Shown here: piece after piece, positions 7,860 through 33,704 of the stretch
Position numbering within the stretch: position 1 is the stretch's first letter
Layout of the letters: the number at the start of each line of letters is the position of its first letter
Assembly (NCBI GenBank): GCA_001599595.1
Contig: BCHH01000003.1
Location: forward strand, 324,847-388,846
Reading direction: 5' to 3'
From: Beverwykella pulmonaria
Lineage: Eukaryota; Ascomycota; Dothideomycetes; Pleosporales; Melanommataceae
DNA: 64,000 nt
The notes under the pieces: generated by a model
What the model was told of the DNA's origin: nothing
What the model saw: only the letters and a program-made list of their open reading frames with translations
Database searches by the model: none
Program-made: the position numbers and the translations under genes

Positions 7860-8985
7860 AGAGTATACATAGCATACAAGTGTGCGATAAAAGTAATGAA
7901 TGAACGATACTGTCAACATGTTCCAGAATGAAAATGAGTTCCTGCGCTGGGTGAGACGGGAATAATTTGAACCTAGAAACTCGTGGCTATTGTAAGGGTT
8001 TATACGGTGAGAATCCTCTAAATAGCGCCACCATAATTATCTTGAAGACGGCGAGGGCGTTGATGGCGTTTTGGCTAGAGATGTAGCTCGACCCGAATCC
8101 CAATTGCCGGAAAGAGGCGGGGCCTCCCGCCAAGCATCTGTCAGAACGCCTTATAACACTTAGACAGCTCCCATCTTTTTTTTTTCTCTGGGCACCTGTT
8201 GCTTGCTCCATCAAGATTTCATCGCGCATAACTGAATTTAGAGCCAGGGGCAAAACATGGTCAATCCCCCATTCCGTCCCCTGCGTCGATCGTCCACCCC
8301 GCTGCCGCCCGATAGCTATCTCAGCCCTTTCTAGGAATGGTTTAGCAGCTTCCTGCCAGCTCAGACAGACACGACGCCAGAAAGCCAGCACACCTTTTGA
8401 TCCAAGCTGCTCCTCATCATCTCTAAGTTACAAAGATAAGCCACAACACTGCAAGTGCTTTCGTCAAAGCTTTCCGACCCAATGCCTCCATCAGCTCGGT
8501 AGGCCAGGTAGCTTCGTTGGACCCTCTGGGTCTAACGCTACCCAATGTAGAAACCAGGCATGCGACGTGGGAGATCGCTCCAGGGTCCACACCATATCCG
8601 TCTAGCGTCGACGATGCTTGGTATTCGCGAGGGAAGAAACACTTTGACGCCATCTTGAATTTCAGCAGCCATTGACACGTTGTTCCACGTCTTTTGGGGC
8701 ATATTCCACACGCAAATTATCCTGCTGTCTAATCCCCAGTCTCTGGCTGCTCCTTGTGAAAATATTCATCTGGTATTCGCAATCGCAGACCGAATCGCGT
8801 TCCAGGTACCTTCGGCTGGCAATCAACGCCACCAATGCTCAACTCGCGACACCAAATCCCATACTACCCTTTTAAACCCCCGCGTTGCTTATCCTGCCCC
8901 TTTCTGTCCTCCCTCTCATAATGCTAATGTCTTTCCCACTATCCCCATAACGAGCCTCTGCGCCCCTCCGACACTCCTTCGAGCC
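7860..8985. other. intergenic region with promoter of the acyltransferase gene
   Basis: Open frames at 7987-8391 and 8423-8653 on the minus strand lack recognisable domains. A C/T-rich stretch at about 8880-8985 looks like the leader of the next gene. The open frame begins upstream at 8680, but the first convincing ATG is at 8986. Confidence 0.45.
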
Positions 8986-10525
8986 ATGCCGTACCTCAGT
9001 TCGACCGAGAAAATGCCCACAAAGGGCGACTTCGTTCTCCCGTCACCAACTTCGCTCTCGACACCCCGCCTGCGTTCGCTTCCGCGGCGAATATCACGCT
9101 TCCTCGTCCCCTCCTTCCTTGCCAAAGACGCAAAACCGGACATCGTGCGGCCAACGGATTTCCTCGACGGCCTGCGCGGCTATGCCTCCTTCATCGTCTT
9201 CATAACGCACTCCGTCTGCCCATTGCATCCCAACTACGGCGTTGGCTTCTGGGGCTTGGACGGCGTCGACGACTACTGGATAACGCAGCTACCCATCATT
9301 CGGTTATTCCACAGCGGGCTGGTATGCGTCCACCTCTTCTTCGCGCTATCTGGATTCTCCATCTCTTTGAAGCCACTGAAGTTGATGCGGCGGGGCGCAT
9401 ACGATGCGCTGTTTGATAGCCTTGTGAGCGCGACCTTCAGACGGGCGTGTAGATTGTATTTGCCATGCTTGGCGCTGCTGCTAGGAGTGCTGGTGCTGGT
9501 GTGCATGGGCTTCTTTGACTATGCGTCCGCCCTGGCCCAGAAGGAGAATTGGCCGTTTCTGGGGATTGCGTTGCAGCCGCCGCCTGTCTTCAAGACATAT
9601 GGAGCGCAGTTTGCGAATTTTTGGAAGTGTTGGTGGCAGTGGAGTGACCCTGTGAGCCCCCTTTCCACCATTACCCAAACCCTACCTTTTCTTGATTTGC
9701 ATATATGTGTGTATGTGTGTGAGAGAGAAAGAGCTGACAGCGCGTGTTTTCAAGATGAACTCCTACTCCCGCATAACCGACCAGCCCTACTCGGGCCAAC
9801 TCTGGACCATTCCCGTGGAGCTGAAATGCTCCCTCATCGTATGGATATCGCTCCTGGGCGTCGCGAAAGCACGCCCTTACATCCGCCTTACCATTCTAAG
9901 CGCCCTGTCCGTGTACTTCTACGCGCGCTCGCATACAGACCCTTGTCTGTTCGTCACCGGCGCTATCCTTGCAGAACTATATCTCGAGCGTGTAGAATCA
10001 GCCCCGAACACTGCTAGCGAAGAGACGAAGAACGTGAAGATCAAGAACTGGGTCCTGTTTTTCTTCGCGCTGTTTCTAGGCAGCTATCCGAGGCGAGGTG
10101 GGGACAAAGCGCTGGGATGGCCTCTCCTTCACAAGCTGGGCGCTATGGTCGTAGGCAATAAAGGGAAAGTGCTGCTCGACTTCTTCACAAGTCTTGGGTC
10201 TATTTTGCTCGTATACGCCGTCTCGCAGTCTGCATCTCTCCAGTGCATGTTCAGCACCCCACTGGCCAAATACCTAGGCAAAATCTCCTTTTCGCTGTAC
10301 TGTGTCCACCAGCCGCTCATCAGCTGGTTCGGGTATAGGAATATCTTGTTCTGGTGGAGCATTACGGGGAATAAATATTTGGTCACGTACGAGCTGGGGT
10401 TTCTGATCGCCTTTTTGATACAGTTGGTGATTACCGTGTGGGCAGCAGATATGTTTTGTAGGGCGGTGGATGAGCCAAGTGTAAAGTTTGCAAGGTGGTT
10501 GGAGGGCAAGTGTACAGCGTCATAG
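8986..10525 (+). CDS. acyltransferase 3 family integral membrane protein
   Basis: Two exons (8986-9651, 9755-10525) give 478 residues. The 103-bp intron has donor GTGAGC, a GCTGAC branch site and acceptor CAAG, and contains a TG/AG-rich microsatellite. The protein shows the acyltransferase-3 (OafA/NodX-like) signature: FLDGLRGYASFIVFITHS near residue 60, with the catalytic-type His in the first span, then HLFFALSGFSIS. After the splice come GQLWTIPVELKCSLIVW and the late motif LGKISFSLYCVHQPLISW. About ten membrane spans are visible. The family transfers acyl groups to sugars, polyketides or other small molecules; the substrate cannot be read from sequence. The N-terminal 45 residues are cytosolic and Ser/Pro-rich. 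Confidence 0.9.
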
Positions 10526-13184: not shown

Positions 13185-15536
13185 ATGTCTTCTTTCAACC
13201 ATCTCGTTGTGTCTCACTGGGAGGAGTTCTCCAAAGCCACCGCAGAACGGCCTGCTGTGACGCTAGACGGAAGAACGCTGGGACTGGCAGATGTAGTTGC
13301 CGTCGCTAGACATGGCCTGTCTGCGAAGCTCTCCCAGCATGCCGTACAAGGCATTGAGAGAAGCGCAGCCGCCATCCAGAAGAGCATTGCGGACGGCGAA
13401 ATCATCTACGGCGTCAACACTGGCTTCGGAGGCTCCGCCGACACACGAACACAAAAGATCGAGAATCTCCAGCGAGAGATCATGCGAGGTCTGAACTACG
13501 GCGTCTTGGACGGCGAACACTACTCCACTCCCTCACGGCTCGGCAAAGGCACAAACGAAGCCGCTCACAATGCCGCACACGTGCTACCGCTCGACCACCA
13601 GACCAGCAACCACATGCCAGAAGCATGGGTCCGTGGCACAATGCTCATCCGCCTCAACTCGCTCACAAACGGCGCGTCTGGCGTTCGATTAGCCACCGTG
13701 CAAACTCTCTTCCAACTGCTCGAGGAAAACATCATTCCCCTCACGCCGCTCCGCGGGAGCATCTCAGCATCGGGCGACTTGAGCCCTCTCTCCTACATCG
13801 GCGGAACGATGCAGGGGAAGCCAAATCTGCTCGTCTGGGCAGGCCCCCAGTCCGATCGCCGTGTCATTCGAGCCGACTGTGCTCTCGCTGAGAAGTCGAT
13901 TCCCAAGGTTCGGCTGGGTCCCAAGGAAGGACTTGCCATTGTCAATGGAACGGCCGCGTCGACATCCGTGGGCGCGCTCGCGATGCATGAAGCCATGTGC
14001 CAGGCCGCGCTCTCACAGGTCCTCACGGCCATGAGCGTAGAAGCCCTACTCGGCACAGATGAGAGCTTCGATCCCTTCTTCTCAGACGTGCGGCCACATC
14101 CGGGACAGCGAGACGCCGCATCGGCAGTCCTGGGATTCCTGAAAGGCTCGTCGCTGATGCAGCATGGCGACGGCTCCGAGAAATCCTCCCTTCGACAAGA
14201 TCGGTACTCGCTGCGCACAGCACCGCAATGGATTGGTCCTGTATTTGAAGACTTTGTTCTCGCCCACCAGCAGGTCACTGACGAGTTGAACTCTGTCACC
14301 GACAATCCGCTGATTGACTGTGCGGATGACGGAACCCATCGCACTATCCACGGCGGAAACTTCCAGGCGCGATCGATAACTTCGGCTATGGAGAAAGTGC
14401 GCCAGGGTATTCAAGGCATTGGTAGAATGCTGTTCACGCAGTGCACCGAGATCATCAACCCCACCACAAACCGCGGCCTACCGCCGAACCTCGTCTTTGA
14501 TGAGCCCAGCGAGTCGTATATCTGGAAGGGCACAGATGTCATGATTGCATCTCTCACATCTGAGCTTGGATTCCTCGCCAACCCAGTTGGAACACACGTT
14601 CAGACGGCAGAGATGGGCAACCAGGCACTCAACTCACTCGCCCTTATCTCAGCACGCTACACTCTCGACGCGCTATCCATTCTTACGCAGCTGTCCTCCG
14701 CCCACCTCGTCGCACTCTGCCAAGCGCTTGACCTGCGTGCAATGAACTGCCGGTTCTTCGAGACACTGGAGCCGCTCTTCCACCAGCTCTTCGCCTCCAC
14801 ATTCTCCCCAGAATCCTTCCTAACTTCCGAACCCGCACCCTCCACCGACATCCAGTCCCTATCACACAAATGCTGGGCTCTATTCACCCAGCGCCTCGCC
14901 CAACTTTCCACCCAAAACACACGTGACCGCTTCACAACCTCCATCTCCACCACCTCATCCCATCTCCTCCCCCTCCTCGCGCCCACCTCCCTCCCTGCGC
15001 TCCAAATCTGGACGACAGAAGCCACAGACCTCTCGCTGAAGCTCTTCCACGCGAATAAAGACATATACTTTGCCACCCCGGATGCTACGCCGTATCTCGG
15101 CGCGGCGTCCAAGCGCATGTACACTTTCGTCCGGAAAGATCTAGGCATCCCGTTTATTCGCAACGACAGCATTTCCACGCCTAAGGGAGAGACTGTGGAT
15201 GGGGTCGAGGAGTATGGGTTTGGGGGCGGGGACAGGAAGAGGCAGGGGATGACGATTGGAGATGTTATTACCGAGGTTTATCGGGCTCAGAGGAGCGGAG
15301 CGCTGTATGGAGTTGTTGTGGAGTGTTTGAAGGACGCTGGTGTGGGGAGTGTGGGCGTTGATGTGGTGAAGCAAACGAGTGCCGAGCTTCTATTGACGAA
15401 GGTGGAGCAGGAGGGTAAGAAATTGGGTGGGATTAAGAGGTTTAGGGTTGAGGATGAGGATGAGGGGAGTGCGACGGATGATTCTGGCGTGGAGAGGGAC
15501 TGGAGAGAGAAGAGGAGGCGGACTTCCAGGGTTTGA
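13185..15536 (+). CDS. phenylalanine ammonia-lyase / aromatic amino acid lyase
   Basis: Single exon, 783 residues, somewhat longer than typical fungal enzymes (about 700). It deaminates L-Phe (or a related amino acid) to the cinnamate. The MIO cofactor triad Ala195-Ser196-Gly197 lies in SISASGDLSPLSYIGG; the catalytic Tyr75 is in IYGVNTGFGG; NSVTDNPLID and the QTAEMGNQ region are present. At the substrate-selectivity pair (Phe-Leu in plant PAL, His-Gln in Rhodotorula-type enzymes, Ser-His in histidase) I align Gly102-Leu103 within MRGLNYGVL, so selectivity is uncertain. The last 50 residues are a charged acidic then basic tail ending KRRRTSRV, which resembles a nuclear-localisation-like cluster and is not part of the fold. 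Hydroxycinnamate production, Phe catabolism or a pathway role are all possible. Confidence 0.93.
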   Translation: MSSFNHLVVSHWEEFSKATAERPAVTLDGRTLGLADVVAVARHGLSAKLSQHAVQGIERSAAAIQKSIADGEIIYGVNTGFGGSADTRTQKIENLQREIMRGLNYGVLDGEHYSTPSRLGKGTNEAAHNAAHVLPLDHQTSNHMPEAWVRGTMLIRLNSLTNGASGVRLATVQTLFQLLEENIIPLTPLRGSISASGDLSPLSYIGGTMQGKPNLLVWAGPQSDRRVIRADCALAEKSIPKVRLGPKEGLAIVNGTAASTSVGALAMHEAMCQAALSQVLTAMSVEALLGTDESFDPFFSDVRPHPGQRDAASAVLGFLKGSSLMQHGDGSEKSSLRQDRYSLRTAPQWIGPVFEDFVLAHQQVTDELNSVTDNPLIDCADDGTHRTIHGGNFQARSITSAMEKVRQGIQGIGRMLFTQCTEIINPTTNRGLPPNLVFDEPSESYIWKGTDVMIASLTSELGFLANPVGTHVQTAEMGNQALNSLALISARYTLDALSILTQLSSAHLVALCQALDLRAMNCRFFETLEPLFHQLFASTFSPESFLTSEPAPSTDIQSLSHKCWALFTQRLAQLSTQNTRDRFTTSISTTSSHLLPLLAPTSLPALQIWTTEATDLSLKLFHANKDIYFATPDATPYLGAASKRMYTFVRKDLGIPFIRNDSISTPKGETVDGVEEYGFGGGDRKRQGMTIGDVITEVYRAQRSGALYGVVVECLKDAGVGSVGVDVVKQTSAELLLTKVEQEGKKLGGIKRFRVEDEDEGSATDDSGVERDWREKRRRTSRV

Positions 15537-20092: not shown

Positions 20093-20658
20093 CTAGGCGG
20101 CCTCAGGCTCGCGCTTATATGACTCGGGGTAGGCAACAGCCTCGTCGTTGCGCTTGTAGGACTCTGGGTATGCGATAGCCTCATCGTTCCTCTTGTAGGA
20201 TTCCGGGTACGCAATAGCCTCGTCGTTTCTCTTGTAGGACTCTGGGTAGGCGATGGCCTCATCATTCCTCTTGTAGCTTTCTGGGTACGCGATAGCCTCA
20301 TCATTCCTCTTGTAGCTTTCTGGGTACGCAATAGCCTCATCGTTCCTCTTGTAGCTCTCTGGGTATGCTACTTCGGTGGTAGGCTCACGCTTATAGGACT
20401 CTGGGTAGGCGATGGCCTCGTCCGTCCTCTTATAAGACTCAGGATAGGCGATAGCTTCATCGTTTCGCTTATATGATTCTGGGTAAGCAATGGCTTCGTC
20501 ATTTCGCTTGTATGATTCTGGATAGGCGATGGCTTCGTCATTTCGCTTGTATGATTCAGGGTAGGCAATGGCTTCGTCATTTCGCTTGTATGATTCTGGG
20601 TAGGCGATGGCTTCATCATTTCGCTTGTATGACTCTGGGTAGGCGATTGCATCTTCAG
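20093..20658 (-). repeat. tandem array of 14 units of about 39 bp encoding the peptide repeats
   Basis: The units are 36-42 bp long and differ at many third positions. Units 2-5 are nearly identical in DNA (Ser as TCA, Arg as CGA), units 8-10 share Ser as AGC and Arg as AGG, and units 11-13 share Ser as TCC. This blockwise similarity indicates expansion by local duplication. Unit 8, with a different linker, divides the array into two halves. Confidence 0.92.
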
Positions 20659-20785
20659 CTAAATCTTATTGTCAGTGACCTGATTTCGTGCGTTCAGGAA
20701 CATGAGAAGACGTACTGTTGGGGTTGGCAATAGGGGCCGCTGACGCAGCAACCGCAAGAGCAACGACAGTGACGGCGAAACGCAT
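20093..20785 (-). CDS. RiPP precursor peptide: signal peptide plus 14 Kex2-type repeats (ustiloxin/dikaritin-like)
   Basis: Two exons (20716-20785 and 20093-20658; 57-bp intron with GTACGT donor, CTGAC branch and TTTAG acceptor) give 211 residues; the length closes exactly in frame. Residues 1-17 (MRFAVTVVALAVAASAA) are a signal peptide, then PIANPNT. From residue 25 come 14 repeats, mostly 13 residues, consensus NDEAIAYPESYKR; unit 1 is shortened (EDAIAYPESYKR), unit 7 begins with Thr, unit 8 is EPTTEVAYPESYKR, unit 14 has Val for Ile. The end is EPEAA. Each unit ends in Lys-Arg, the Kex2 site, so secretion would release up to 14 peptides. This is the architecture of fungal dikaritin-type precursors, and two UstY oxidase genes follow within 4 kb. 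The mature core is not certain: the invariant part is AYPESY, with two tyrosines available for cross-linking. A secreted repeat protein of another kind is the alternative. Confidence 0.9.
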
Positions 20786-22113
20786 AATGTGAGATTGCAG
20801 TGATAGATTGAATGAGGAGGAGAGTATATGCACAGAAGGGGTAGTGATCGACAGTTGCTAGAAGGTATGAGATTCAATAGAAGTATTGACAGACTGTAGT
20901 TCTTAAGTCAAATGAGTAGTTGAGTTGGCTGGCGGGTGTCTATGTACTAGAAATACACCGCAAACACTATGGACTTCGCGGATCACTGATACGTCAGATG
21001 CCTGCTCATCGCATCATCGGATCGCTGCAAGTCTATCCATTTCGTTTGTCCGTCAAGTATCTTCAGGGACCAGGATGTGTGTAATGGTGTCGGCCATTAT
21101 CGTCGGTCGCAGTATCTTCTTGGAGCAAATAATGTCCCCATTGGGCAGCTCATAGATAGACTTGTCTCACCATTCGGTGGCACAGTCAGAAGTCCGCGAG
21201 GCAACCTGTATCATTGGCCCAGAGGGTCAGGCGAGGATAGTAAAGGCACTTTCTTGGAGTGGTGTAGTCCCGGACTTCAGTTGGCAATGCGGAGATACAG
21301 TCGCAGCCGGCCTCGGTGCATCCTAGCATTATTCTTGCTGGCCGTGAGAAAGCGCGCGGCTGCAGCATACCGCCCCCGAACGTTGAAATAGACTACAATA
21401 GGAACAGCAAGCTTCTCACTGGTTTTCATTCTTCGGAATACGAGATAGCTGGTGCGTATGCACCCCGGAAGGAGCTGTGGTGTAACACATGTGGATGCTC
21501 ATCTCACGTTAGATGCGCATACCTTGACCCTTGTTCTTGTATCGGACTTGGGGGTACGCGGTAATTTTCTCGACAAGTCTTTCGGGATTCGAAGAAGAGT
21601 ACGAATGCGGGGTCATCAATACAGTAGAAACTCGAGCTATCGCGCCAATACAGGGCTGACGGGCCGTTAGTGGCCTTGCGCCCCCATGTCCGGTTGCGCA
21701 TTTATCAGCACGGTGCGCAGCAACACCTTTATCTTACCACCAATGATCGGTCGCAAGGCTGAGTGAGCACCGTTTTGGGCATGTGCGCCAATTGCTGTGC
21801 TGTTCTGGGATGGAACTTCCCGTACTTTTATCATGTCACTAACAATCGGCCGCGTGGCTGAGTGGGCAATGGTTTTTGGTATGAGCGCTAGTTGCTGTGC
21901 GGTTTTGGGATAGTACTTCCCGCTCATCGATGTCGACTCCTCTAATTGAAGCGGTACCGGGCTGACCTGCAACTTCTATATGCCCGTTTCTGCCCATAGT
22001 CTTTTTGGTTCCCGCTATCTTCTTTCGAATCTGAACGAGTCTCTCATTACATCATCCCTCACGACTTCTATCTCAAGATCATACTCCAGAAAATCAGCTT
22101 CCCACACAGCAGA
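20786..22113. promoter_or_regulatory. divergent region between RiPP precursor and first UstY gene
   Basis: About 1.3 kb between divergent starts. A TATA-like GCATATAC on the minus strand lies about 40 bases upstream of the precursor ATG (near 20825-20832). An imperfect direct repeat of about 95 bp occupies 21728-21922. Several short open frames here have no domain. I found no further biosynthetic gene, although small unspliced frames cannot be excluded. Confidence 0.45.
21728..21922. repeat. two imperfect tandem copies of a ~95-bp unit
   Basis: Copy 1 covers 21728-21822 and copy 2 covers 21827-21922. Both share the blocks AATCGG (GATCGG in copy 1), GGCTGAGTG, TTGCTGTGC and a final ACTTCCCG in the same order and spacing. 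The pair lies 190-390 bp upstream of the UstY gene start at 22114. It could be a duplicated regulatory block or an old repeat fragment. Confidence 0.75.
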
Positions 22114-22905
22114 ATGAGAATGTTTCCCAACTTCTCCAAAAAGTTTGGTTACTCCTACTCGAAGCTCCCAAACGACAGTCGAAATGATCTCGATCTCCCA
22201 GAAAGTCAAGTACAGCCACGATCACAATCAAGAAGGCGCCGGCTTTCGCAAATAATAAATCTGGTGTGCTGCTCTGTCGGCTTTTTGATTGTCGGATTCT
22301 TCCTAGGGCAGTCTTTTGCGCAGTACGGAAGCGAATTCTCCAGTTCTCTCGCTCTAAAAGTAGAACCTCACTTATTCAAGTATGAGCGTTTGTTTGGCGA
22401 GAGACCTTCGAATGAAAGCAACAGCGCCTGGGAGGATTTATTCCCAAAGCGAGGTGGATTCTTCACACATCCCAGGATTGCGCCGAAACGGTCTGCATAT
22501 TCAGTGTTCCATCAACTGCATTGCTTGGTACGAGTTCCATATTCGCAGTATTGAAAATGATTGTCCTAACAGCAATAGAACGCACTTCGCGAGGCGTATT
22601 GGACAACACTGGATGCAGCAGTCTCGCCAACCGCTTTGCGTCTTGACCAAGTTCCATTCGAAATTTCACCCCCGCATATGAGACATTGCATTGACCTGCT
22701 GCGTCAAACACTCATGTGCAGTCCCGATTTGACGGTAGAGGTGAAGAACGAGACTCTGGGTGGAGTCACTGGTTTTGGTGCTGTGCATCAGTGTCGCAAC
22801 TGGGATCAGTTGATGGGATGGATGGAGAAGTGGGAAGATGTCGGCGCCCCAGCGAATAAGCCGGGGGAGGGCCATGGCGGGCATGGGCATCATCATGGTT
22901 CATGA
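22114..22905 (+). CDS. UstYa-type DUF3328 oxidase (RiPP cyclisation)
   Basis: Two exons (22114-22527, 22579-22905; 51-bp intron with GTACGA donor and CCTAAC branch) give 246 residues. After a short cytosolic N-terminus, one transmembrane segment covers about residues 48-70. Both signature motifs of the UstYa/UstYb family are present: HQLHC at 133-137, ending just before the splice site, and HMRHC at 171-175. They are joined by NALREAYW after the splice, and IDLLRQTLMC follows the second motif. The C-terminus is Gly/His-rich (GHGGHGHHHGS), which is unusual and could bind metal. Known family members catalyse oxidative cyclisation of ribosomal or nonribosomal peptides in fungi. It is divergent from the repeat precursor and convergent with the second family member, which supports a joint pathway. 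Confidence 0.92.
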
Positions 22906-23111
22906 GAAGTTGAATAAATACCCTGGAGAGCGAGATTGGAATGAGCAGTGTACTGTAATGATGTTATACTATTGTATGTTGAAGACAACAATATGAGCTT
23001 GTATCCACGGATAATTTTCTCGTTGCACATACAACTGAGACATCGGGGTATATTCGCGAGTATCGTAAATTGGTCTAACTCTACTTTGGTTGGCAGCCTG
23101 CATCTTGAGCA

Positions 23112-24052
23112 TCACCGCACCTGTAACAATGGGTTCTTCAGTCGCTTCATCTCCTCATCACTAACTACTCTATCCTTCGTTGTGTCCAAAAATGCATCCC
23201 AATCCACACAAGTATGAACTGACTCACTAACATTAAACATCGGCAGATTGGTCGTAGGGTTCCAAACAAATGTCGTAAGTGAAGTATCAGGTTGACATAT
23301 CGACGCTTGTCTAAGAAGCTCGATGCAATGGTCTTGACTTGTTAGCGAACGAAACGCATTTTGCCATATTCCCAAAGTTCAAACTCACCGACATGCCCCT
23401 TATCTTTCTTTGATTCCTCTTCGGTGCTGTTACACTCTCTCGCTCTGTCGAACGAGTGCCGAAGCATTTTCTGTCAATCAATCGGTCATTATGATGTTCT
23501 GTAAATTGGGGAGGAGGAAGGCTTACGACGCAATGTAGACTGTGAAAGACGCCGAACCAACCCAGATGCCCGCCTCCCTCTGGCAGTTTCACACTCTCCT
23601 GATTCGTACTGCGTAGTTCCTCCTCGGAAAATCTCATGTTCATTGGCTTTAGTAATGCCTCCCATGCAGTGTCAAGATCTTCTTTGGGCTTTTCGCCGGC
23701 ATAGGGCGTCATGGAGAGATTATGGAAGGTTGTAGGCTTGAGAACTGTTGATACAGGTATTGTGTTCTCTTGCTCTGCACGTGTTTAGTATTAGGTATAT
23801 TTCTTCAAAACAATATCTCGAGAATTTACCTAGTTTCCGGGTATCAGTCATACATGTTGCGGTTGCTTTCTGTTTGATGATGACCAACGAAATGATAGTG
23901 TAGAGGAATATCAACACAGTGTGAATGCATGCATTCCGTTTCCAGTTCCATTGGCTCGATTGGCGACTCGATTCGTAAATAGTTTCGCTTTTCAGATCTT
24001 CTTCATCACTGCTATATCTTCCAAGAAACGGCTCATTTTGTTCACCTCCCAT
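23112..24052 (-). CDS. UstYb-type DUF3328 oxidase (RiPP cyclisation)
   Basis: Four exons (23830-24052, 23527-23774, 23389-23470, 23112-23332; introns of 55, 56 and 56 bp) give 257 residues; every junction keeps phase. One membrane span lies at about residues 43-64 (HTVLIFLYTIISLVIIKQ). Then come the family landmarks TFHNLSMTPYAGEKP and FHSLHCVKMLR. The first HxxHC motif, HSLHC, is at 152-156 next to intron 2; the second, HVDHC at 183-187, is created only by splicing intron 3 and continues as IELLRQASICQPD. The C-terminal part VHTCVDWDAF matches the Cys-Arg/Val-Asn/Asp-Trp region of the other copy. Two such proteins beside one repeat precursor is the arrangement of ustiloxin-type pathways. Confidence 0.92.
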
Positions 24053-25461
24053 GTTGTCGTTGTTGTGATGTATGTAGAAGTTGTTGTTGATAACGCAAAC
24101 TGGAGAGTAGAACACCTTTTCGTCGATGTACACGTCCGAAATGTGGCCTAAGGAGACGAACACAAAGCAGTCCGCCTTGACTACCAAGCTATGACTTTGT
24201 TCATGGATCCCAGAATAATTGGAACGTACGACTGTACGCTGATTCCAAGGGCTGATACCAGCGCTAAAATTTGAGGCGGTGTAATCCGCCCACGGCGTGG
24301 GGAGCCTCACAGCACATCTCAGCACGCGCAGCGTCGATGGTCCCCGTTCCAGGATATACCCAAGCCGTCCGTGTCCATTCTCCACGCCGATTTGGAACAA
24401 GACCCAGCCAGTCCTAGCGCCGGGATTCAATGCGCGCCACTACATCAGCTTCAGTTTCCGAAGCCACAACCCCAGCTTCCTATTTGTGCAACCCAAACTG
24501 GGGGCTGATTGATGAGGTTCGGGCTGCGAGGCCTCCCAAGTGGGGTTGCGAGGCTGAGGATGATCAAGCGATCTCATGCAACTGATGCGCAACATGGAAG
24601 CGATGTACTGCAAAGCACGTTCGGATGCGTGCGGAAGCTGACTAGTCCTCATTCCTCGATTTTTATCAAATGTAAGATTCTGAAAGGAGATGGTGTCATT
24701 TGGCAGGAAGTCCATTATCTCTTCTAAATTGAGCTATAAGAATCCAACAGTGAACAACAAGCAAGGAGATTAAAAGTCCGCCTCGCGTAAATCGTGTGTG
24801 ACCCCATGTTTCTAGGGAAGGATTTCTCTTCCGATGGTCTTCTGCATGTTGCAAGGGAAGGATTCTCCTCCGAGGGTCTTCTGCAGGCAGCAATCCCTCG
24901 AATCCTCCCAACCCCAGCAACATAAGCTTGATCACACGACTGCTGTAAATGGAACAAACGGACTTGCGCAAACAAAATGAGTGATTGATAGTTTGAAAAA
25001 TATAAGGACGCATCTTCGGGTAGTAACATGGATCTTTGACGAGGGCAAGGATGCTCGGAAATACAATGCAGCGCTTGGCTCCAGAGTGTAAGGCCTTGAG
25101 CAAAGGTTCTCGTGCGATTAGTTTGGGGGCGTGTGTTGTTGCTTTGGTTGGAAAGGGCGTTGAGTAATTCCTGGAGGTTTTCGCAAGCCTCGGGCTCCAG
25201 AACCTACCTAAGGTCCAACAACAATCGCTAGGGTAACGATTGGTAAGCCTTCAAAGATATGTTCACGTAACAATCCTTGGAGAGTCTAACACAGAGTGCA
25301 CACGCAATGTACGATCCAATCACGAACGCGCTCGACGTTCATGTCTTTATCAAATATACACACTTGGATACAGAAACCATTAACGCATTGATGGGAAGAT
25401 GAAGTAAAATAATACAAGTAACGCTACATTCCACTGAACTAGCTCTCTTCCATCCACACTA
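24053..25461. other. intergenic region, no gene recognised
   Basis: About 1.4 kb upstream of the UstYb-type gene and downstream of the P450 gene. Open frames at 24440-24715 and 24696-25103 have no recognised domain. A two-copy ~40-bp repeat lies at 24814-24892. A diverged small gene could be hidden here. Confidence 0.4.
24814..24892. repeat. two-copy ~40-bp tandem repeat
   Basis: Copies at 24814-24853 and 24854-24892 both begin AGGGAAGGATT, continue with TCTCTTCCGA or CTCCTCCGAG, and contain GGTCTTCTGCA. In one minus-strand frame it would encode two copies of a CRRPSEE-containing unit, but there is no Kex2 pattern or signal peptide, so coding is doubtful. Confidence 0.7.
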
Positions 25462-26967
25462 TCACACCGTAAACGCTACCTTGGCGCCATTCTTACTCTG
25501 CGTACTCAGCGTATATACCTCCTGAAACTCATACACCGGATCCCTATTCTGCAATCCGCTAAACGTCTGTGCAAACCTCACAATAGTATACGCTGCCTGC
25601 GTGATCGCCATCTGCTGTCCAATACAGATCCTCGGGCCTCCCGAGAACGGCAGGTATGCCCAATGTACTGGTTTATGCTCTTCCAGCCATCTCTCAGGTC
25701 GGAACTCTTCAGCGTCGGACCCAAAGATGTCTTTTCGTCGGTGCAGCGTGTAGAAGCTAATGGAGAAGATATCTCCCGCGCGGATGAAGATCGGGGAGTG
25801 ACCATCAGCGCCGCCACCGAGGGGCAGAGTGGTGTCGTGCAGGGCGATGCGCGAGGTGGTGCCAATACTGGGGTTGAGACGGAGGGATTCTGTGATGACG
25901 GCTTGGAGGTACCTCATCGATTTGAGGGACTCGAAGGTTATCTCTTGGTTCTTCGGCAGGGCGAGTGTCTCCGCGCGCAGCTTCTCCCAGACGTAGGGGT
26001 GCCGTGCGACGTTGAAGAAAAGATTCGTGAGTGCGACGCCTGTCGCCTCGTGCGCGGGCAGGAACACATTGAGCAGCTCATTGCGGATCGCGGTTCGATC
26101 GGTCGTTTCTTTGAGAAGCTCGTGTGCGAGGACATAGTGCGTGTTACTTCCATCCCCGCTATGCTTCTCTGGGTTCTGCAGCACGGCGTCGATTCTCCGA
26201 TCCACAAAGTCTTGCGCAAGCTTGCACGACTTCCAGAATTTGGGGTCGCGCGTGAAGATGTTCCATTGTGGAAGCTGCATTCGCCGTCCCAGAATCATCT
26301 GGCTGTAGTTCATAGCTCTTAGCCAGCCCTCGTTTTCCGGCGTGGGGTTTCCGAGCATGTTCAGACTCTCGCCAAACAACATCTCGGATGCAGCGTCGAG
26401 CGCCAACAGGGTGAAAAGTGGCCTCAGATCCACAGTGGAGCCGTCCCGAGGGATTTTGTTGAGCAGATTCTGGACATGTACTTCGAATGCAGGAAGATCC
26501 GAGATCTCTTTCCGAGCAAAAGCAGGCTTCAAGAGAGCTCGCGAGCGCTCCCAAGCATGGCCATCCGTCCCCATGATGCCCTGGCCGATCAGAGGCTGGA
26601 AGGAGAAGAGTCGTAGAGGTTGAACACCCCAGTTTTTGAAGTCTGTCGACATGACGGCTTGGACATTCTGGGGTTCCACTGAGTAAATCTTGCGCGAACC
26701 GTAGAACTTGGATTGGAACGTCGAGCCGTACTGCTCGTGGAGTTCTCGGATAGACGCATTTCTTCGATCTTTCTTGATGTCGACGAATTGCTTGTATACG
26801 AAGTCCAGGCCAAACAGCCAGTTCGTTTGTTGCGGCGACGGTGGATTTTTGCAGCGAAGTCTTTTGGCTGTGAAATATTGCACTACAGCAGTGTACGTGA
26901 TTTTTGAAATGTAAATAATAGAAAAGGAAACGAGGAAGACAGCGACGTTGCCAGCGAAGAACGTCAT
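25462..26967 (-). CDS. cytochrome P450 monooxygenase (CYP52-like clan)
   Basis: A single exon of 501 residues from the ATG at 26967; the frame is open ten codons further upstream but without ATG. An N-terminal membrane anchor of about 25 residues targets it to the ER. The I-helix motif is PAHEATGVAL, the K-helix ExxR is ESLRLNPS, the PERF-like motif is FRPERWLE, and the heme-binding loop is PFSGGPRICIGQQ with Cys448. The sequence around the heme resembles the CYP52/CYP63 (alkane-hydroxylase type) clan, tentatively. Its position 1.4 kb from the UstYb gene and divergent to a methyltransferase makes it a candidate tailoring hydroxylase of the RiPP pathway, as in the ustiloxin cluster. This role is inference. 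Confidence 0.92.
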   Translation of the reverse strand: MTFFAGNVAVFLVSFSIIYISKITYTAVVQYFTAKRLRCKNPPSPQQTNWLFGLDFVYKQFVDIKKDRRNASIRELHEQYGSTFQSKFYGSRKIYSVEPQNVQAVMSTDFKNWGVQPLRLFSFQPLIGQGIMGTDGHAWERSRALLKPAFARKEISDLPAFEVHVQNLLNKIPRDGSTVDLRPLFTLLALDAASEMLFGESLNMLGNPTPENEGWLRAMNYSQMILGRRMQLPQWNIFTRDPKFWKSCKLAQDFVDRRIDAVLQNPEKHSGDGSNTHYVLAHELLKETTDRTAIRNELLNVFLPAHEATGVALTNLFFNVARHPYVWEKLRAETLALPKNQEITFESLKSMRYLQAVITESLRLNPSIGTTSRIALHDTTLPLGGGADGHSPIFIRAGDIFSISFYTLHRRKDIFGSDAEEFRPERWLEEHKPVHWAYLPFSGGPRICIGQQMAITQAAYTIVRFAQTFSGLQNRDPVYEFQEVYTLSTQSKNGAKVAFTV

Positions 26968-27624
26968 AGTTGCAAATTGGAAAGTGATTTTCGTCAAATC
27001 GAAAGTTGTCGAGGGCTATTGATGGGAGAACGAGACGGCACCTTGGAATTGGTACACGCTTATTTCGAGAACGCTTCAGGCTGTCGCAAAGCTGTAAACC
27101 CACACGCGAGTCAATATGCTCCGTGATTAATCTATGATTCCGACGGCTACTTGACTATGGAAGCCCCCATCTTGTGATGACGGGCGCTGACGGGCGCTAG
27201 CGATCGATTGAAGTCCGACCCTATGGCTTGTTTTAGCTTCGGGAATCATGGTCGAAGACCCACATACGAGATGTGGCTCATCGGCGTGGGTGAGAGCTTA
27301 AATGCTTGTTACACCAGGGGAGCGGGCTTTAGCACCAATATGGTTAGCTTGGCCAGCTGCATATTCCCGAAAGAAGTGGGCCACAAAACAGCTGTCGATG
27401 CTCGCGCCAGGCGCAGCATTTTGATACCGGGCTGAAAGGCTGCAAAGCTCAGGGTAGATTCTAATTGTGTCTAGGCCGTGTTTCCGAGATCTGTCAATTC
27501 CCCACCTCATCTGTAAAATCAACACATTTCCAATTCACTTCCAAAATTCATGGGGCAAGCTCTCGTCCACATCAAACCCAAATCCACTACCCACTACCCA
27601 CCATCAAGCCTCACAAAACCAAAC
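26968..27624. promoter_or_regulatory. divergent promoter between P450 and methyltransferase
   Basis: About 650 bases between the divergent starts at 26967 and 27625. It contains two adjacent copies of the 10-mer GACGGGCGCT at about 27179-27198, near the middle of the interval, which could be a repeated regulator site. No factor is assigned. Confidence 0.4.
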
Positions 27625-28533
27625 ATGGGATCCATTAGCAATGAAAGCACGACCGTGCCCGCCGTTCCCGCCTTAACACATGGAGTACTACCGAAAGCAA
27701 ACGGCGATTTGCCATCTACCAGCAATGACAACTACATTCTTGGGCGCTCGCACTTCTCCTCTTCGCGCCTCAACCTCTCTCATTTCCTCTGGAAGCAAGT
27801 CCTAGGCTTCAACATCCATCCTTCTATTCCCACCTCAGGCTTCAAGCGCATCGTCGACATTGCGACCGGCACCGCGATCTGGCCACTCGACGTCGCGTCC
27901 GAGTTCCCCGATGCGGAAGTCGACGGCTTCGATATTGCGCTCGACCAATGCCCACCTAAAAATTTCTTTCCGCGCGTACGGAAGCTGGGAACTTGGGATA
28001 TCTTCGAGGAGCCACCTGAGGAGATGCAAGGCCGATACGATATCGTGCATGTACGACTCGTCATCTTTGTCGTGCAGAACAACGACCCGCGAGCCATAAT
28101 CAGGAATTTGATGAAGCTGCTCAAGCCGGGGGGCTATCTCCAGTGGGACGAGCTCGATCTCAGTGGCTCACATCTGGAGCGGGGATCCTTTTCTGAAAGC
28201 TCAAATGATGTTCCTGCTCCGGCAGCGGAGAGCGCATTGAAGCGGGTTCAGGGAGTTTCAGTGAATCATTGGGCGTGTAATTTGCCTTCCATTTTGGCTG
28301 AGGAGGGCATGGTGCAAGCCGATAAGGATGTGTACATCATTCCGCCACCGTGGGCGAAGATGTTCTCCGATATGCATTTGATGATGGAGGAGGAGCTGCC
28401 TATGCCGACGCCGGAGGCGAAGCAGGCCAAGCGAGATGAGATTGCGGCCATCAGTGCCGATTCAAAGCGTGGAGCGATGCTTTCGACTCCTTTGATGGTT
28501 ACTGTGGCGAGGAAACCATTGGCACAACGTTGA
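27625..28533 (+). CDS. SAM-dependent methyltransferase (class I, LaeA/UMTA-like)
   Basis: A single exon. The ATG at 27625 (AAACATGGGA, 302 residues) is favoured by context over the in-frame ATG at 27550 (327 residues). The N-terminal NYILGRSHFSSSRLNLSHFLW and motif I RIVDIATGTAIWPLDVA match the group of fungal secondary-metabolism methyltransferases related to LaeA. Further motifs are VDGFDI (acidic end of strand 2), YDIVHVRLV and LLKPGGYLQWDE. No membrane segment or signal peptide is seen. It may methylate the pathway product or act as a regulator; the ustiloxin pathway also has a methyltransferase. It shares an intergenic region with the P450 and ends only about 120 bp from the end of the O-methyltransferase gene. 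Confidence 0.88.
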   Translation: MGSISNESTTVPAVPALTHGVLPKANGDLPSTSNDNYILGRSHFSSSRLNLSHFLWKQVLGFNIHPSIPTSGFKRIVDIATGTAIWPLDVASEFPDAEVDGFDIALDQCPPKNFFPRVRKLGTWDIFEEPPEEMQGRYDIVHVRLVIFVVQNNDPRAIIRNLMKLLKPGGYLQWDELDLSGSHLERGSFSESSNDVPAPAAESALKRVQGVSVNHWACNLPSILAEEGMVQADKDVYIIPPPWAKMFSDMHLMMEEELPMPTPEAKQAKRDEIAAISADSKRGAMLSTPLMVTVARKPLAQR

Positions 28534-28652
28534 AATTGAATGAAATTAGTGAATAGAGATTGTATGAAAGGGTCATCAATGAAAAACTGTGCAATGATTG
28601 TATTGAAATATTGTAGGCCATGTGATTTGACATTCAAAGGCAAATAGCTTGC

Positions 28653-30010
28653 TCACGGCTCCCACTTGGCTTCAACGACGCCCAGTCTTGAACCAGGGAC
28701 ACGAGTAGTTCCGAGAAACTTGAATCGTGAATCACAGTCTCTGAATAGCTGCTCCCAATCGTCCGAATCCCTCTCTTTCCCGTTGTGAAGCTCCAGCATT
28801 GAAAGGTCCATTGTCCTGAAATATGAGTCAGTGCGAGTCTGCTGAAACAGTATTCACTATTGTACTAACCTTATGACTTTACTCTGGTACGACGATGCCA
28901 CACCAGGAGGCGGAAGGACAAACTCATTTAGAACAACTCTTGCTCCCCTCTTGAGAGCCGGTATCAACGCTCTTAAGATCTTGATGGCATACTTGTCAGA
29001 CCAATCGTGCAAGATCCACCTCAAAAGATACACATCTGCGCGCACTGTCTGATCGTTGAAGAAATCGTGTTCCATAAACGTGATTCTGTCCTGCAGTTCG
29101 GCGGCGAGTTTAGCACGACCTTCTGCAACAACCTCTGGCCGGTCTTGCACGATGAATTTGACTCCCTCATGCTTCTTTGCAATCGCCTGACTCACAAGCC
29201 CGGTGTTACCACCAACATCGACAACAGTCTCATACCCGCTCCATGGAATGGCATCCGCGAGTCCACTTGGTTCAAAACCAGGTGCTGAATTAGACCAAGC
29301 CATGGCATCAGCATAGCGAGCCTCTCGGACAGGGTCTTTGTGAACTTCGTCAAAGAAGACTGCTTCGGTACCGTTCGCAAGACTAAAGCTAGTCTGATTC
29401 GGCTCCTGGGCGTCTGGCCACTTCTGCAGCGCATCCACAGTCTTGACCGCAGACGGGCACAATTCTTCTGTCACGAAGCCCAACCAAGCTTTCATCAAAG
29501 GGTTTGCTAGTCTCTTAGAGGCAGCAGTATGGGTGACGTATCCTTTGCGTGGCTCGGCGAATATGCGATACGCCATCGCATGACGGAGAAGGCGCCGAAT
29601 TTCAGACTCGTTTTGGCCGCATGAGTCCGCCAGCTCAGCGAATGTGACCTCTTCTTTACCTCCTGGGAATTCGAGAAGATTGAAACGTAGGATTGCTTGA
29701 ATACTCAGCAGTGAATTATGCTATTGCTTGTGAGAAATTGTAGCTTTGGGCTGATGTGGATGCATACGAAAAGCGAGCTGAGCAAGCCAGTTGGACCAAG
29801 CATGAGGGCTTGAAGTTCGTCAGTCGCATCGATCACAGCTTGTCGCGAAGCGTCAATTTTCTCGCCATGGCCGAAGAGCAGTGTAGGTGGATTGTCCGCA
29901 GCAAAGGAAGGAGTAGGAAGTCCTTGGGAGGACAAATAGCCATCGATGCTTTGAGTGTTCGTTTGGATGGTGTTTGCAAGCTCGATGATTCTGTTGGAAG
30001 TGGAAGACAT
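28653..30010 (-). CDS. O-methyltransferase, winged-helix type (COMT-like)
   Basis: Three exons (29768-30010, 28870-29720, 28653-28815; introns of 47 and 54 bp) give 418 residues. The N-terminal half holds the dimerisation/winged-helix part (HNSLLSIQAILRFNLLE after the first splice, then LADSCGQNESEIRRLLRHAM). SAM motif I VVDVGGNTG is at about 247-255; VQDRPEVV, then LLRWILHDWSD with the catalytic-type His319-Asp320, and GARVVLNEFVLPP follow. The final exon ends RVPGSRLGVVEAKWEP, a typical C-terminus for fungal O-methyltransferases of secondary metabolism. It is convergent with the LaeA-like methyltransferase. Methylation of a phenolic (tyrosine-derived) hydroxyl would fit the pathway, but this is inference. 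Confidence 0.92.
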
Positions 30011-32022: not shown

Positions 32023-33704
32023 ATGATGTCATTCCTGTATTTCTTGAAAGCGTCGGTTGCGTTGGCGCCGTTGGTGTACGGGCATTATGGAAAGCCAAAT
32101 GGTACACTGCCGTTACTGATGGAGGCGACGACTGAAGAATTGGCTGCTGGGCTTGAGGCGAATCTGTTCACCAGCGTCGACCTCGTCAATGTGAGGGTTA
32201 GCCAAGCCCAATTGGATCCCTAGTTAATGATCGACAGGCATATATCGGCCGCATCCTCGAAGTAAATGCCACCCTTCATATGGTCACAGAGATTAACCCA
32301 GATGCCTTGGAGATCGCCAAAGAACTCGACGAGGAGCGAGCATGTAGGAAGCTTCGAGGGCCACTTCACGGTCTCCCGATCCTTATCAAGAACAACATCG
32401 CGACCTTGGATCAAATGAACAACACTGCAGGTTCGTACGCTCTCCTCGGCGCGAAAGTTCCCCGTGACGCGACCGTGGCCGCCAAACTCCGCAAAGCAGG
32501 CGCCATCATCCTCGGGAAAACTAACCTCTCGCAATGGGCCAACTTCCGCTCCAGTAACTCTTCGAATGGATGGTCTGCGCATGGCGGGCAAGTCTACGGC
32601 GCCTACTACCCTGGGCAGGATCCCTCCGGCTCATCTTCGGGCTCGGGGGTGTCCTCGTCGCTTGGTCTGGCAGTTGCGACGTTGGGAACAGAGACTGATG
32701 GGTCGATTGTGAGCCCGAGCGAGAATAGCAACCTAGTGGGGATCAAGCCTACAGTAGGCCTCACCTCTCGCGCTCTTGTGATTCCCATATCCGAGCACCA
32801 GGACACCGTTGGCCCCATGGCTCGGACCGTCAAAGACGCTGCGTACCTGCTCCAAGCCATCGCAGGCCCTGATCCATACGACAATTACACATCTGCCATC
32901 CCGTTCAACGGCACGTTGCCCAACTATGTAGCCGCGTGCAAACTCGATAGCCTGGTTGGGAAGCGCATTGGCGTTCCGCGCAACGCCATCGGTACTCGCG
33001 ACGCTGAGTCGGCACCCATTCTCGATGCTTTCGAGGCCGCGCTCGGGATTCTCGAAGAAGCTGGCGCCATCATCGTCGATAACACGAACTACACGGCCTG
33101 GGATGCATACCTGAACAGTCTGGCAGAAGGCTTTGTACTTGATGCAGATTTCGTCGCGAATCTCGCCTCGTACCTCGCACAACTAACCTACAACCCCAAC
33201 AACGTGACCAGCCTTGCTGATATCCGTAACTTCACGCAGTCATTGCCGGCAGAGGACTACCCCGACCGCGACACGGCAACCTGGGACGAGTCTCTTACGC
33301 TCAACTTCACAAACACGAGCCCCGAGTTCTGGGCGTACTATCAAGAGGATTTGTACCTTGGCGGCGCGGGTGGACTTCTTGGTGCACTGGACACGTACAA
33401 ATTGGATGCTGTGGTGATTCCTACGTACATTTCTTCAAGCATCTCAGCCATTATCGGGGGTCCCTTGGTCACTGTGCCGCTTGGAGCCTATCCAGCGAAT
33501 ACCACAGTGAGGACAAACAGCCGGGGAGATTTAAACGCCACTGCGCCTGGTATTCCCTTTGGACTGGCGTTTGCGGGGAGGCGTTGGAGTGAGGAGAGCC
33601 TGGTGGGCTTTGCGTACGCGTATGAGCAAAGAAGCCATGTGCGGGAGAAGGTGAAGCCGTATGTGGAGCCGACCACGGAGTTGGTGGACGTCATCAGGAA
33701 GTAG
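32023..33704 (+). CDS. secreted amidase-signature family hydrolase
   Basis: Two exons (32023-32190, 32238-33704; 47-bp intron) give 544 residues. The first 21 or so residues (MMSFLYFLKASVALAPLVYG) form a signal peptide. The Ser-cisSer-Lys triad of the family is present: Lys107 in GLPILIKNN, the Gly/Ser-rich PSGSSSGSGVSSSLG with the cis-Ser, and the nucleophile Ser in TLGTETDGSIVSPS. Many Asn-X-Ser/Thr sites fit secretion. These enzymes hydrolyse amides (free acids plus ammonia). It lies 2 kb beyond the O-methyltransferase, so a role in releasing or modifying a secreted peptide is conceivable but unsupported. The frame is open upstream of the ATG, and a longer N-terminus cannot be excluded. 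Confidence 0.92.

What the first reader, a model, noticed from the sequence alone, without database searches (positions are those of the whole stretch)
20093..30010. Candidate fungal RiPP (dikaritin-type) cluster: repeat precursor, two UstY oxidases, P450, two methyltransferases
Seen: a secreted precursor with 14 Lys-Arg-terminated repeats, two DUF3328 proteins each with two HxxHC motifs, a P450, a LaeA-like methyltransferase and an O-methyltransferase, contiguous over 10 kb. Established: ustiloxin, phomopsin and asperipin pathways combine such a precursor with UstYa/UstYb oxidases, often with P450s and methyltransferases. Inferred: the cluster makes a cyclic peptide from the YPESY region. I do not recognise this core from known products, and the set lacks the tyrosinase and peptidase genes of ustiloxin, so the chemistry may differ.
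Basis: partly seen in the sequence, partly recalled or inferred. Interest (0 to 1): 0.92.

Follow-up and report, generated by a model that had tools for sequence, protein, structure and literature searches.

The report
Fungal peptide cluster with YPESY repeats
A fungal gene cluster that probably makes a small cross-linked peptide from one secreted protein carrying fourteen copies of a seven-residue piece; a near-identical piece and related enzymes turn up in a lichen fungus, so it may be an old shared peptide family rather than a one-off.

Summary
Within 20093-30010 lie a secreted-type 211-aa precursor with 14 units ending YPESYKR, two UstYa (DUF3328) proteins each with two HxxHC motifs after splicing, a P450, a small methyltransferase and a Methyltransf_2 protein. 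Best read as a dikaritin-type RiPP cluster.

- Canonical units differ almost only at silent sites (pN/pS 0.011).
- The motif occurs 14 times in the 45.6-Mb genome, all in this array.
- The core [IV]AYP[ED]SY recurs in four outside proteins; one, from the lichen fungus Rusavskia elegans, is predicted fused to a P450 homologous to this one.
- P450 and UstY1 homologues appear linked in seven other places (Pleosporales, Arthoniomycetes, unnamed).
- Methyltransf_2 paralogues lie near other UstY genes (4 of 11, at three loci), including a sister cluster with core IVYPDTGLY.

The likely core is IAYPESY; NDEA looks like spacer. Tyrosinase and S41 peptidase are absent, as in asperipin-2a. Against: no such precursor was returned from P. 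nodorum, and membership of the small methyltransferase rests on position. Not shown: expression, product, cyclisation. The library searched holds no paper with AYPESY or AYPDSY. New variant of a known kind.

The parts
20093..20785 (-). Precursor (Kex2-processed repeat protein), 211 aa; exons 20785-20716 and 20658-20093; 14 units [IV]AYPESY-KR
20112..20647 (-). 39-bp tandem array of repeat units
22114..22905 (+). UstY1 (UstYa family), 246 aa; exons 22114-22527 and 22579-22905; one TM-like helix, HQLHC and HMRHC, His-rich C-terminus; relatives such as P0127 and P0140 start at the residue matching the second ATG, 22120
23112..24052 (-). UstY2 (UstYa family), 257 aa; exons 24052-23830, 23774-23527, 23470-23389, 23332-23112; one TM-like helix, HSLHC and HVDHC
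25462..26967 (-). Cytochrome P450, 501 aa, single exon; homologues appear linked to UstY1 homologues elsewhere
27550..28533 (+). Small SAM methyltransferase (Methyltransf_23/12), 327-aa ORF; divergent from the P450 with about 580 bp between; membership rests on position only
28653..30010 (-). Methyltransf_2 (O-methyltransferase fold) protein, 418 aa; exons 30010-29768, 29720-28870, 28815-28653; family enriched near UstY genes in this genome

Best explanation
A dikaritin-type RiPP cluster. The precursor enters the secretory pathway (inferred from its N-terminus) and the kexin cuts it after each of 14 Lys-Arg sites (inferred). The Lys-Arg is trimmed from the C-terminus and an acidic-Ala spacer from the N-terminus, leaving about 14 copies of IAYPESY (inferred from spacer variation in relatives). 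Two membrane-anchored UstYa-family oxidases, UstY1 and UstY2, oxidise the core, most likely joining a conserved tyrosine oxygen to a beta-carbon to close one or two rings (inferred from ustiloxin, phomopsin and asperipin-2a). The P450 and the Methyltransf_2 protein then tailor the product. The small methyltransferase may add an N-methyl group as UstM and PhomM do (guess). Shown: the genes, the unit structure, selection on the peptide, and the recurring core. Supported by annotation data: linkage of P450 with UstY1, and of P450 with precursor units, in relatives.
For: Precursor architecture and spliced enzymes. Near-pure synonymous variation between units. The motif is unique to this array. In 34 units from the window and four outside proteins, Ala-Tyr-Pro is invariant because the units were picked by it; beside it Ile/Val is 34 of 34, the second Tyr 33 of 34, Asp/Glu after Pro 32 of 34, and Ala before Ile/Val 32 of 34. 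R. elegans P0001 holds six such units ahead of a P450 stretch 45% identical to the window's over 218 residues. Five P450/UstY pairs have identical longest-contig lengths, against a mean of 0.118 and maximum of 2 over 2000 shifts; two more have neighbouring locus tags, P. nodorum HBI56_224370/224390 and Coniocarpon Q9162_005142/005140. By bit score all seven of these UstYs are nearer UstY1 (133-299) than UstY2 (26-57). A sister locus, L015 on C17, has UstY1-like and UstY2-like genes in the same convergent order, a precursor with core IVYPDTGLY, and Methyltransf_2 genes on both sides. The genome has one kexin-type gene, S8 plus P domain.
Against: No expression or metabolite data. In P. nodorum, where UstY1 and P450 homologues have near locus tags, no such precursor was returned (one search gave 4 proteins, none named as from it); it may be unannotated, outside the length limits or have another core. 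No tyrosinase or S41 peptidase near. The UstY1 paralogue of highest score in this genome (L019, 47.5% identity) has no repeat array in the 10 kb read. P450 paralogues: 0 of 13 near other UstY loci; small-methyltransferase paralogues: 1 of 16. A mirror test of full P450 and UstY1 distances was not significant (918 of 5000); only a 50-residue block chosen afterwards was (1 of 5000). P450 and methyltransferases are expected in the cytosol while the precursor is secreted, and nothing here resolves that.
Confidence: 0.8

Rival explanations
1. Linear secreted peptides. The repeat protein is cut by kexin into linear IAYPESY-type peptides that act at the cell surface or as signals, and the UstY, P450 and methyltransferase genes belong to a separate neighbouring cluster.
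For: In a survey of 7878 KEPs, 78% have no DUF3328 gene among the 15 nearest genes, and most Y-bearing ones are not required to be cyclic (PMC7329392 section 7). Spacers in relatives look like those trimmed from a yeast mating factor (the likeness is recalled).
Against: In R. elegans the repeats are joined in one gene model with a P450 whose homologues accompany UstY1 in seven other places. A sister locus pairs a YPD..Y core with UstY1-like and UstY2-like genes. Both tyrosines are kept in 33 of 34 units.
Confidence: 0.1
2. A structural wall or matrix protein whose Tyr-rich repeats are cross-linked without being cut apart; the UstY proteins cross-link the polymer.
For: Regular Tyr-Pro repeats; nothing here shows that the Lys-Arg sites are cleaved.
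Against: Lys-Arg follows the core in 14 of 14 window units, and in the 20 outside units K is at the first place in 17 and R at the second in 15, while the spacer varies in length and letters; this fits cleavage more than a polymer. Genes of small-molecule tailoring type lie beside the array.
Confidence: 0.04
3. Same kind of cluster, other chemistry: the UstY proteins desaturate, hydroxylate or otherwise oxidise the core rather than closing a ring. This is a variant of the best explanation, so its odds overlap with it.
For: DUF3328 members have several activities, and PhomYc, PhomYd and PhomYe are linked to dehydro-residues in phomopsin (PMC10880069 passages); hydroxylation and chlorination are reported in cyclochlorotine clusters (PMC12048977 section 17). 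Two UstYs here could do different steps.
Against: Conservation of both tyrosines in 33 of 34 units is what ring closure through tyrosine would leave; not decisive.
Confidence: 0.25

Closest known systems
Ustiloxin B pathway (ust cluster, Aspergillus flavus)
   Same: Precursor with signal-like N-terminus and 16 core repeats flanked by ED and KR motifs, two UstY oxidases, a methyltransferase and a P450 (PMC6514808 passages; PMC12048977 section 17).
   Different: Core YAIG instead of IAYPESY; its tyrosinase has no counterpart in the window, and no flavin monooxygenase was found among the ORFs scanned; a Methyltransf_2 protein is present here.
Asperipin-2a pathway (apr cluster, A. flavus)
   Same: No tyrosinase and no peptidase; multi-tyrosine core (FYYTGY) closed by a UstY protein through ether links to beta-carbons (PMC6514808 passages).
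   Different: Four genes only: precursor, one UstY, a transporter and a reductase; no P450 or methyltransferase listed.
Lichen Clan R1 clusters in Parmeliaceae (PMC12048977)
   Same: Two UstY genes, an O-methyltransferase and a SAM methyltransferase; the authors say O-methyltransferases had never been reported in dikaritin clusters (sections 11 and 17 part 1 read).
   Different: Clan R1 has a tyrosinase, its O-methyltransferase lies between the UstY genes, and no repeat precursor was found; here the precursor is plain, a P450 is present and the Methyltransf_2 gene lies outside the UstY pair. Homology of the two O-methyltransferases was not tested.
[quoted passage not shown]
   Same: Signal-like N-terminus, repeated units, Kex2 sites, neighbouring DUF3328 genes (abstract and section 7).
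   Different: KEP cores are described as highly diverse; this one recurs in a lichen fungus of another class. Whether this core is in that survey's supplement could not be checked.

Membership tests
Dikaritins (RiPPs from KEP precursors cyclised by UstYa homologues; definition in PMC10512285 passages) | Precursor with repeated cores separated by Kex2 sites | tested here: met
   14 units each ending Lys-Arg; cleavage itself not shown
Dikaritins | N-terminal ER signal peptide on the precursor | tested here: inconclusive
   Hydrophobic stretch at residues 3-15, mean hydropathy 2.38; no signal-peptide predictor was available
Dikaritins | UstYa-family protein(s) beside the precursor, with double HxxHC | tested here: met
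   Two, 92.5 and 124 bits against cut-off 25; motifs present after splicing
Dikaritins | Product cyclised by the UstYa homologue(s) | not testable with these tools
   Needs culture and mass spectrometry
Ustiloxin/phomopsin subgroup | Tyrosinase gene (UstQ/PhomQ) in the cluster | tested here: not met
   Genome scan for PF00264: nearest match on this contig is C3:467662, about 79 kb beyond the window's end
Ustiloxin/phomopsin subgroup | S41 peptidase in the cluster | tested here: not met
   Genome scan for PF03572: 8 matches, none on this contig
Asperipin-2a subgroup | Single UstY with reductase and transporter | tested here: not met
   Two UstY genes; no reductase or transporter among the 40 sequences scanned
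O-methyltransferase (Methyltransf_2) as an active enzyme | Methyl transfer activity | not testable with these tools
   PF00891 at 113.7 bits. Best solved matches are 7bqj and HpiI 7bqo, which I recall as pericyclases of this fold, so the activity is open

The most novel reading that the evidence does not exclude
An old, class-spanning family of cyclic peptides with a fixed [IV]AYP[ED]SY core, made by a UstY1-P450 pair in Pleosporales, Arthoniomycetes and lichen-forming Lecanoromycetes. Seen so far: the core in the window, in one named Lecanoromycete and in three unnamed sources; the enzyme pair in Pleosporales, one Arthoniomycete and unnamed contigs. Unlike most fungal RiPP cores, this one would have been kept for a conserved target, perhaps a signal or defence shared by lichen and plant-associated fungi.
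Probability: 0.42. Interest if true: 0.75.

Novelty: new variant of a known kind. Interest (0 to 1): 0.55.

Why it matters
A review of 2022 counts only five reported dikaritins (PMC10512285 passages), and a lichen survey of 2025 reports many UstY clusters but no repeat precursor in its two conserved clans (PMC12048977). Here a precursor, its core and an enzyme set are given together, with a recurring core that can be looked for by mass in lichens and Pleosporales. It also ties a Methyltransf_2 family to UstY loci and gives a sister locus in the same genome for comparison. If the core is truly fixed across classes it points to a conserved target, which would be unusual for this kind of peptide.

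Tried and rejected
Paper searches for the core strings: one search found 29 papers holding the letters YPESY (20 listed, all unrelated words) and none of those listed holds AYPESY; papers with more of the terms are listed first. One search found 2 papers, unrelated, none with AYPDSY. Other searches (40 of 149 papers listed, 3 of 3, 14 of 15, 15 of 1,673, 12 of 103, 11 of 11) showed no title or abstract start describing this cluster. The library lacks most subscription journals and all bioRxiv preprints, and supplements could not be read.

Mirror test of P450 and UstY1 distances over 8 pairs: not significant on full sequences (918 of 5000), where P0140 and P0205 are truncated predictions. I then restricted it to 50 residues ending at HQLHC (1 of 5000). 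That choice was made after seeing the first result, and the signal mostly reflects a split between Pleosporales-like and other sequences, so I give it little weight.

P450 paralogues (0 of 13) and small-methyltransferase paralogues (1 of 16) are not enriched near UstY loci, so those two genes get no support from inside the genome; tyrosinases are weakly enriched (2 of 21, p = 0.034). The Methyltransf_2 test counts two genes at one locus (C17) as independent, so its p value is somewhat too small.

P0033 was suspected to be another precursor-P450 fusion because of its length; it holds no YP[DE].Y units.

Only 22 of 30 other UstY loci were read for precursors; the other 8 were not.
Full report
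What is there. The window is part of a 45.6-Mb fungal genome (contig C3, 324847-388846). Its organism was not identified. The closest named relatives of its P450 are from Parastagonospora nodorum (77%) and Periconia macrospinosa (73%), both Pleosporales, so it is probably in or near that order (inference). Six genes lie between 20093 and 30010: precursor (-), UstY1 (+), UstY2 (-), P450 (-), small methyltransferase (+), Methyltransf_2 protein (-). The four spliced genes were re-translated from their exon coordinates and all seven introns are GT-AG.

The precursor. It has 211 residues, a hydrophobic N-terminus, 14 units ending YPESYKR and a short tail. Twelve canonical units were compared codon by codon: pS 0.98, pN 0.011, mean DNA identity 79%. 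Serine even switches between TCN and AGC codons. So the units have drifted far at silent sites while the peptide is held fixed. A degenerate pattern for the motif hits nowhere else in the genome (14 of 14 hits in the array, control 0).

Relatives of the precursor. A protein search returned four proteins at E <= 0.01 with the same core: P0001 (a Rusavskia elegans MAG; Lecanoromycetes) and P0002, P0003 and P0004, unnamed. Over 34 units anchored on Ala-Tyr-Pro (14 from the window, 20 from outside), the Ile/Val before it is kept in 34, the second Tyr in 33, Asp/Glu after Pro in 32, Ser in 32. The spacer before the core varies in length and letters but is rich in Asp, Glu and Ala; Asp/Glu is at its second-last place in 32 of 34 and Ala at its last in 32 of 34. 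I therefore place the core at [IV]AYP[ED]SY and treat NDEA as spacer (inference); the trimming enzyme is not identified.

Linkage. P0001 is a single predicted protein of six repeat units followed by a P450 stretch 45% identical to the window's over 218 residues. It is probably a gene-model fusion, but it places repeats and P450 next to each other in a lichen fungus. For P450 and UstY, the 120 listed P450s (of 624) and 85 UstYs with a contig length (of 86) were compared: five pairs share an exact longest-contig length (8829, 67837, 80568, 9801, 17898), against 0.118 on average and at most 2 over 2000 shifts. The 67837 pair is Periconia macrospinosa in both lists. Two further genomes carry both with near locus tags: P. 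nodorum HBI56_224370 and 224390, and Coniocarpon cinnabarinum (Arthoniomycetes) Q9162_005142 and 005140. By bit score all seven UstYs are nearer UstY1 (133-299 bits, 46-71% identity) than UstY2 (26-57 bits). P. nodorum also has a UstY2 homologue (P0126, 57%), but under another strain's tag, so its position is unknown. No YPESY-type precursor named as P. nodorum was returned (only the 7991 candidates sharing most words were scored).

The same genome as a control. It has 31 UstY loci when matches within 12 kb are merged. Of 22 read outside the window, 5 carry repeat arrays with Kex2-type sites and different units (L011, L012, L015, L025, L032); L012 and L025 are short. L015 looks like a sister locus: UstY1-like and UstY2-like genes in the same convergent order, a precursor with core IVYPDTGLY, a Methyltransf_2 gene inside the piece and another just outside it. 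L019, which holds the UstY1 paralogue of highest score, shows no array. Of 11 Methyltransf_2 paralogues at E <= 1e-20, 4 lie within 10 kb of UstY loci, at three loci (binomial p = 1.2e-5 taking genes as independent; with the looser set, 4 of 23, p = 2.7e-4). This supports the Methyltransf_2 protein as a cluster member. The same test gives nothing for the P450 (0 of 13) or the small methyltransferase (1 of 16).

What is missing. The nearest tyrosinase match on the contig is about 79 kb beyond the window's end and no S41 peptidase match is on the contig. Asperipin-2a lacks both too (PMC6514808 passages; PMC12048977). One kexin-type gene, with S8 and P domains in a frame of 850 residues, is at C3:1835849-1837120. 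A profile of the two UstYs found no solved relative (one match at E 0.67, not credible).

How it likely works. Secretion, kexin cutting, end trimming, oxidation by two membrane-anchored UstYs, then tailoring. Each UstY has one strong hydrophobic stretch near its N-terminus, and in the model of a UstY1 relative the two HxxHC motifs sit in two helices. In an alignment of 54 UstYs, chosen from the 86 hits, the invariant residues are W105, H132, H135, C136, H170, H173, C174, C184, D187 and C209 (P0127 numbering), which would suit a metal site (inference). Ring closure through tyrosine is my preferred chemistry because both tyrosines are kept; desaturation or hydroxylation is a real rival.

Verdict. 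Observation confirmed, interpretation supported, chemistry unproven. By the definition in PMC10512285 (KEP precursor, cyclised by UstYa homologues) it meets the genomic criteria of a dikaritin; the cyclisation itself was not testable. It differs from the ustiloxin and phomopsin subgroup in lacking tyrosinase and S41 peptidase, and from asperipin-2a in its enzyme set. What appears new is the core, its recurrence in another fungal class, and the UstY1-P450 pairing. Papers used: PMC7329392 (abstract and outline, section 6 part 1, section 7), PMC12048977 (abstract and outline, section 11, section 17 part 1), PMC10512285, PMC10880069 and PMC6514808 (passages only); all other titles were seen in search listings only.

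Noticed in passing
L015 (G000:C17:311500-321499), 4029-9379: Sister locus with a five-unit precursor RDEDIVYPDTGLYAENGKR (last unit incomplete), UstY1-like and UstY2-like genes and a Methyltransf_2 gene; another Methyltransf_2 gene lies just outside at C17:309734-311096.
   Followed up: partly
window 22870-22905: UstY1 ends in a His-rich tail GHGGHGHHHGS. 26 of 86 UstY hits have four or more His in their last 30 residues, including the five P450-linked ones whose C-terminus is complete; possibly a metal-loading tail.
   Followed up: partly
L031 (G000:C3:4545000-4553999): A Methyltransf_2 gene, a tyrosinase and a UstY within about 5 kb, resembling lichen Clan R1 in content; no direct repeats found.
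   Followed up: partly
L032 (G000:C2:696500-706499), 6813-7628: Repeat precursor with 34-residue units NADKEAYNALGENPTQVESNEGVNLLAPRIGYKR near UstY and Methyltransf_2 genes.
   Followed up: no
L011 5415-6026, L012 7327-7527, L025 2079-2341: Three more arrays with Kex2-type sites and different units (..NPADILGKR..ETRIYYKTT..EKR; QFGYNVPAGVEGE..EKR) near UstY genes.
   Followed up: no
L023 (G000:C7:2387500-2397499), 6947-7983: 60-bp repeats with a run of N inside, near a UstY gene; not counted as a Kex2-type array.
   Followed up: no
window 24805-24885: Two near-identical copies of about 39 bp upstream of UstY2 (TRF score 127); purpose unknown.
   Followed up: no
window 13185-15536 and 32280-33704: Aromatic amino acid lyase and amidase genes flank the cluster at some distance; no evidence that they belong.
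   Followed up: no
P450 hits P0005-P0124: The P450 family is large (624 proteins at E <= 1e-60). Of the 120 listed, 14 bear an organism name, and most of those are lichen-fungus genera as I recall, so more such clusters may exist in lichens.
   Followed up: partly
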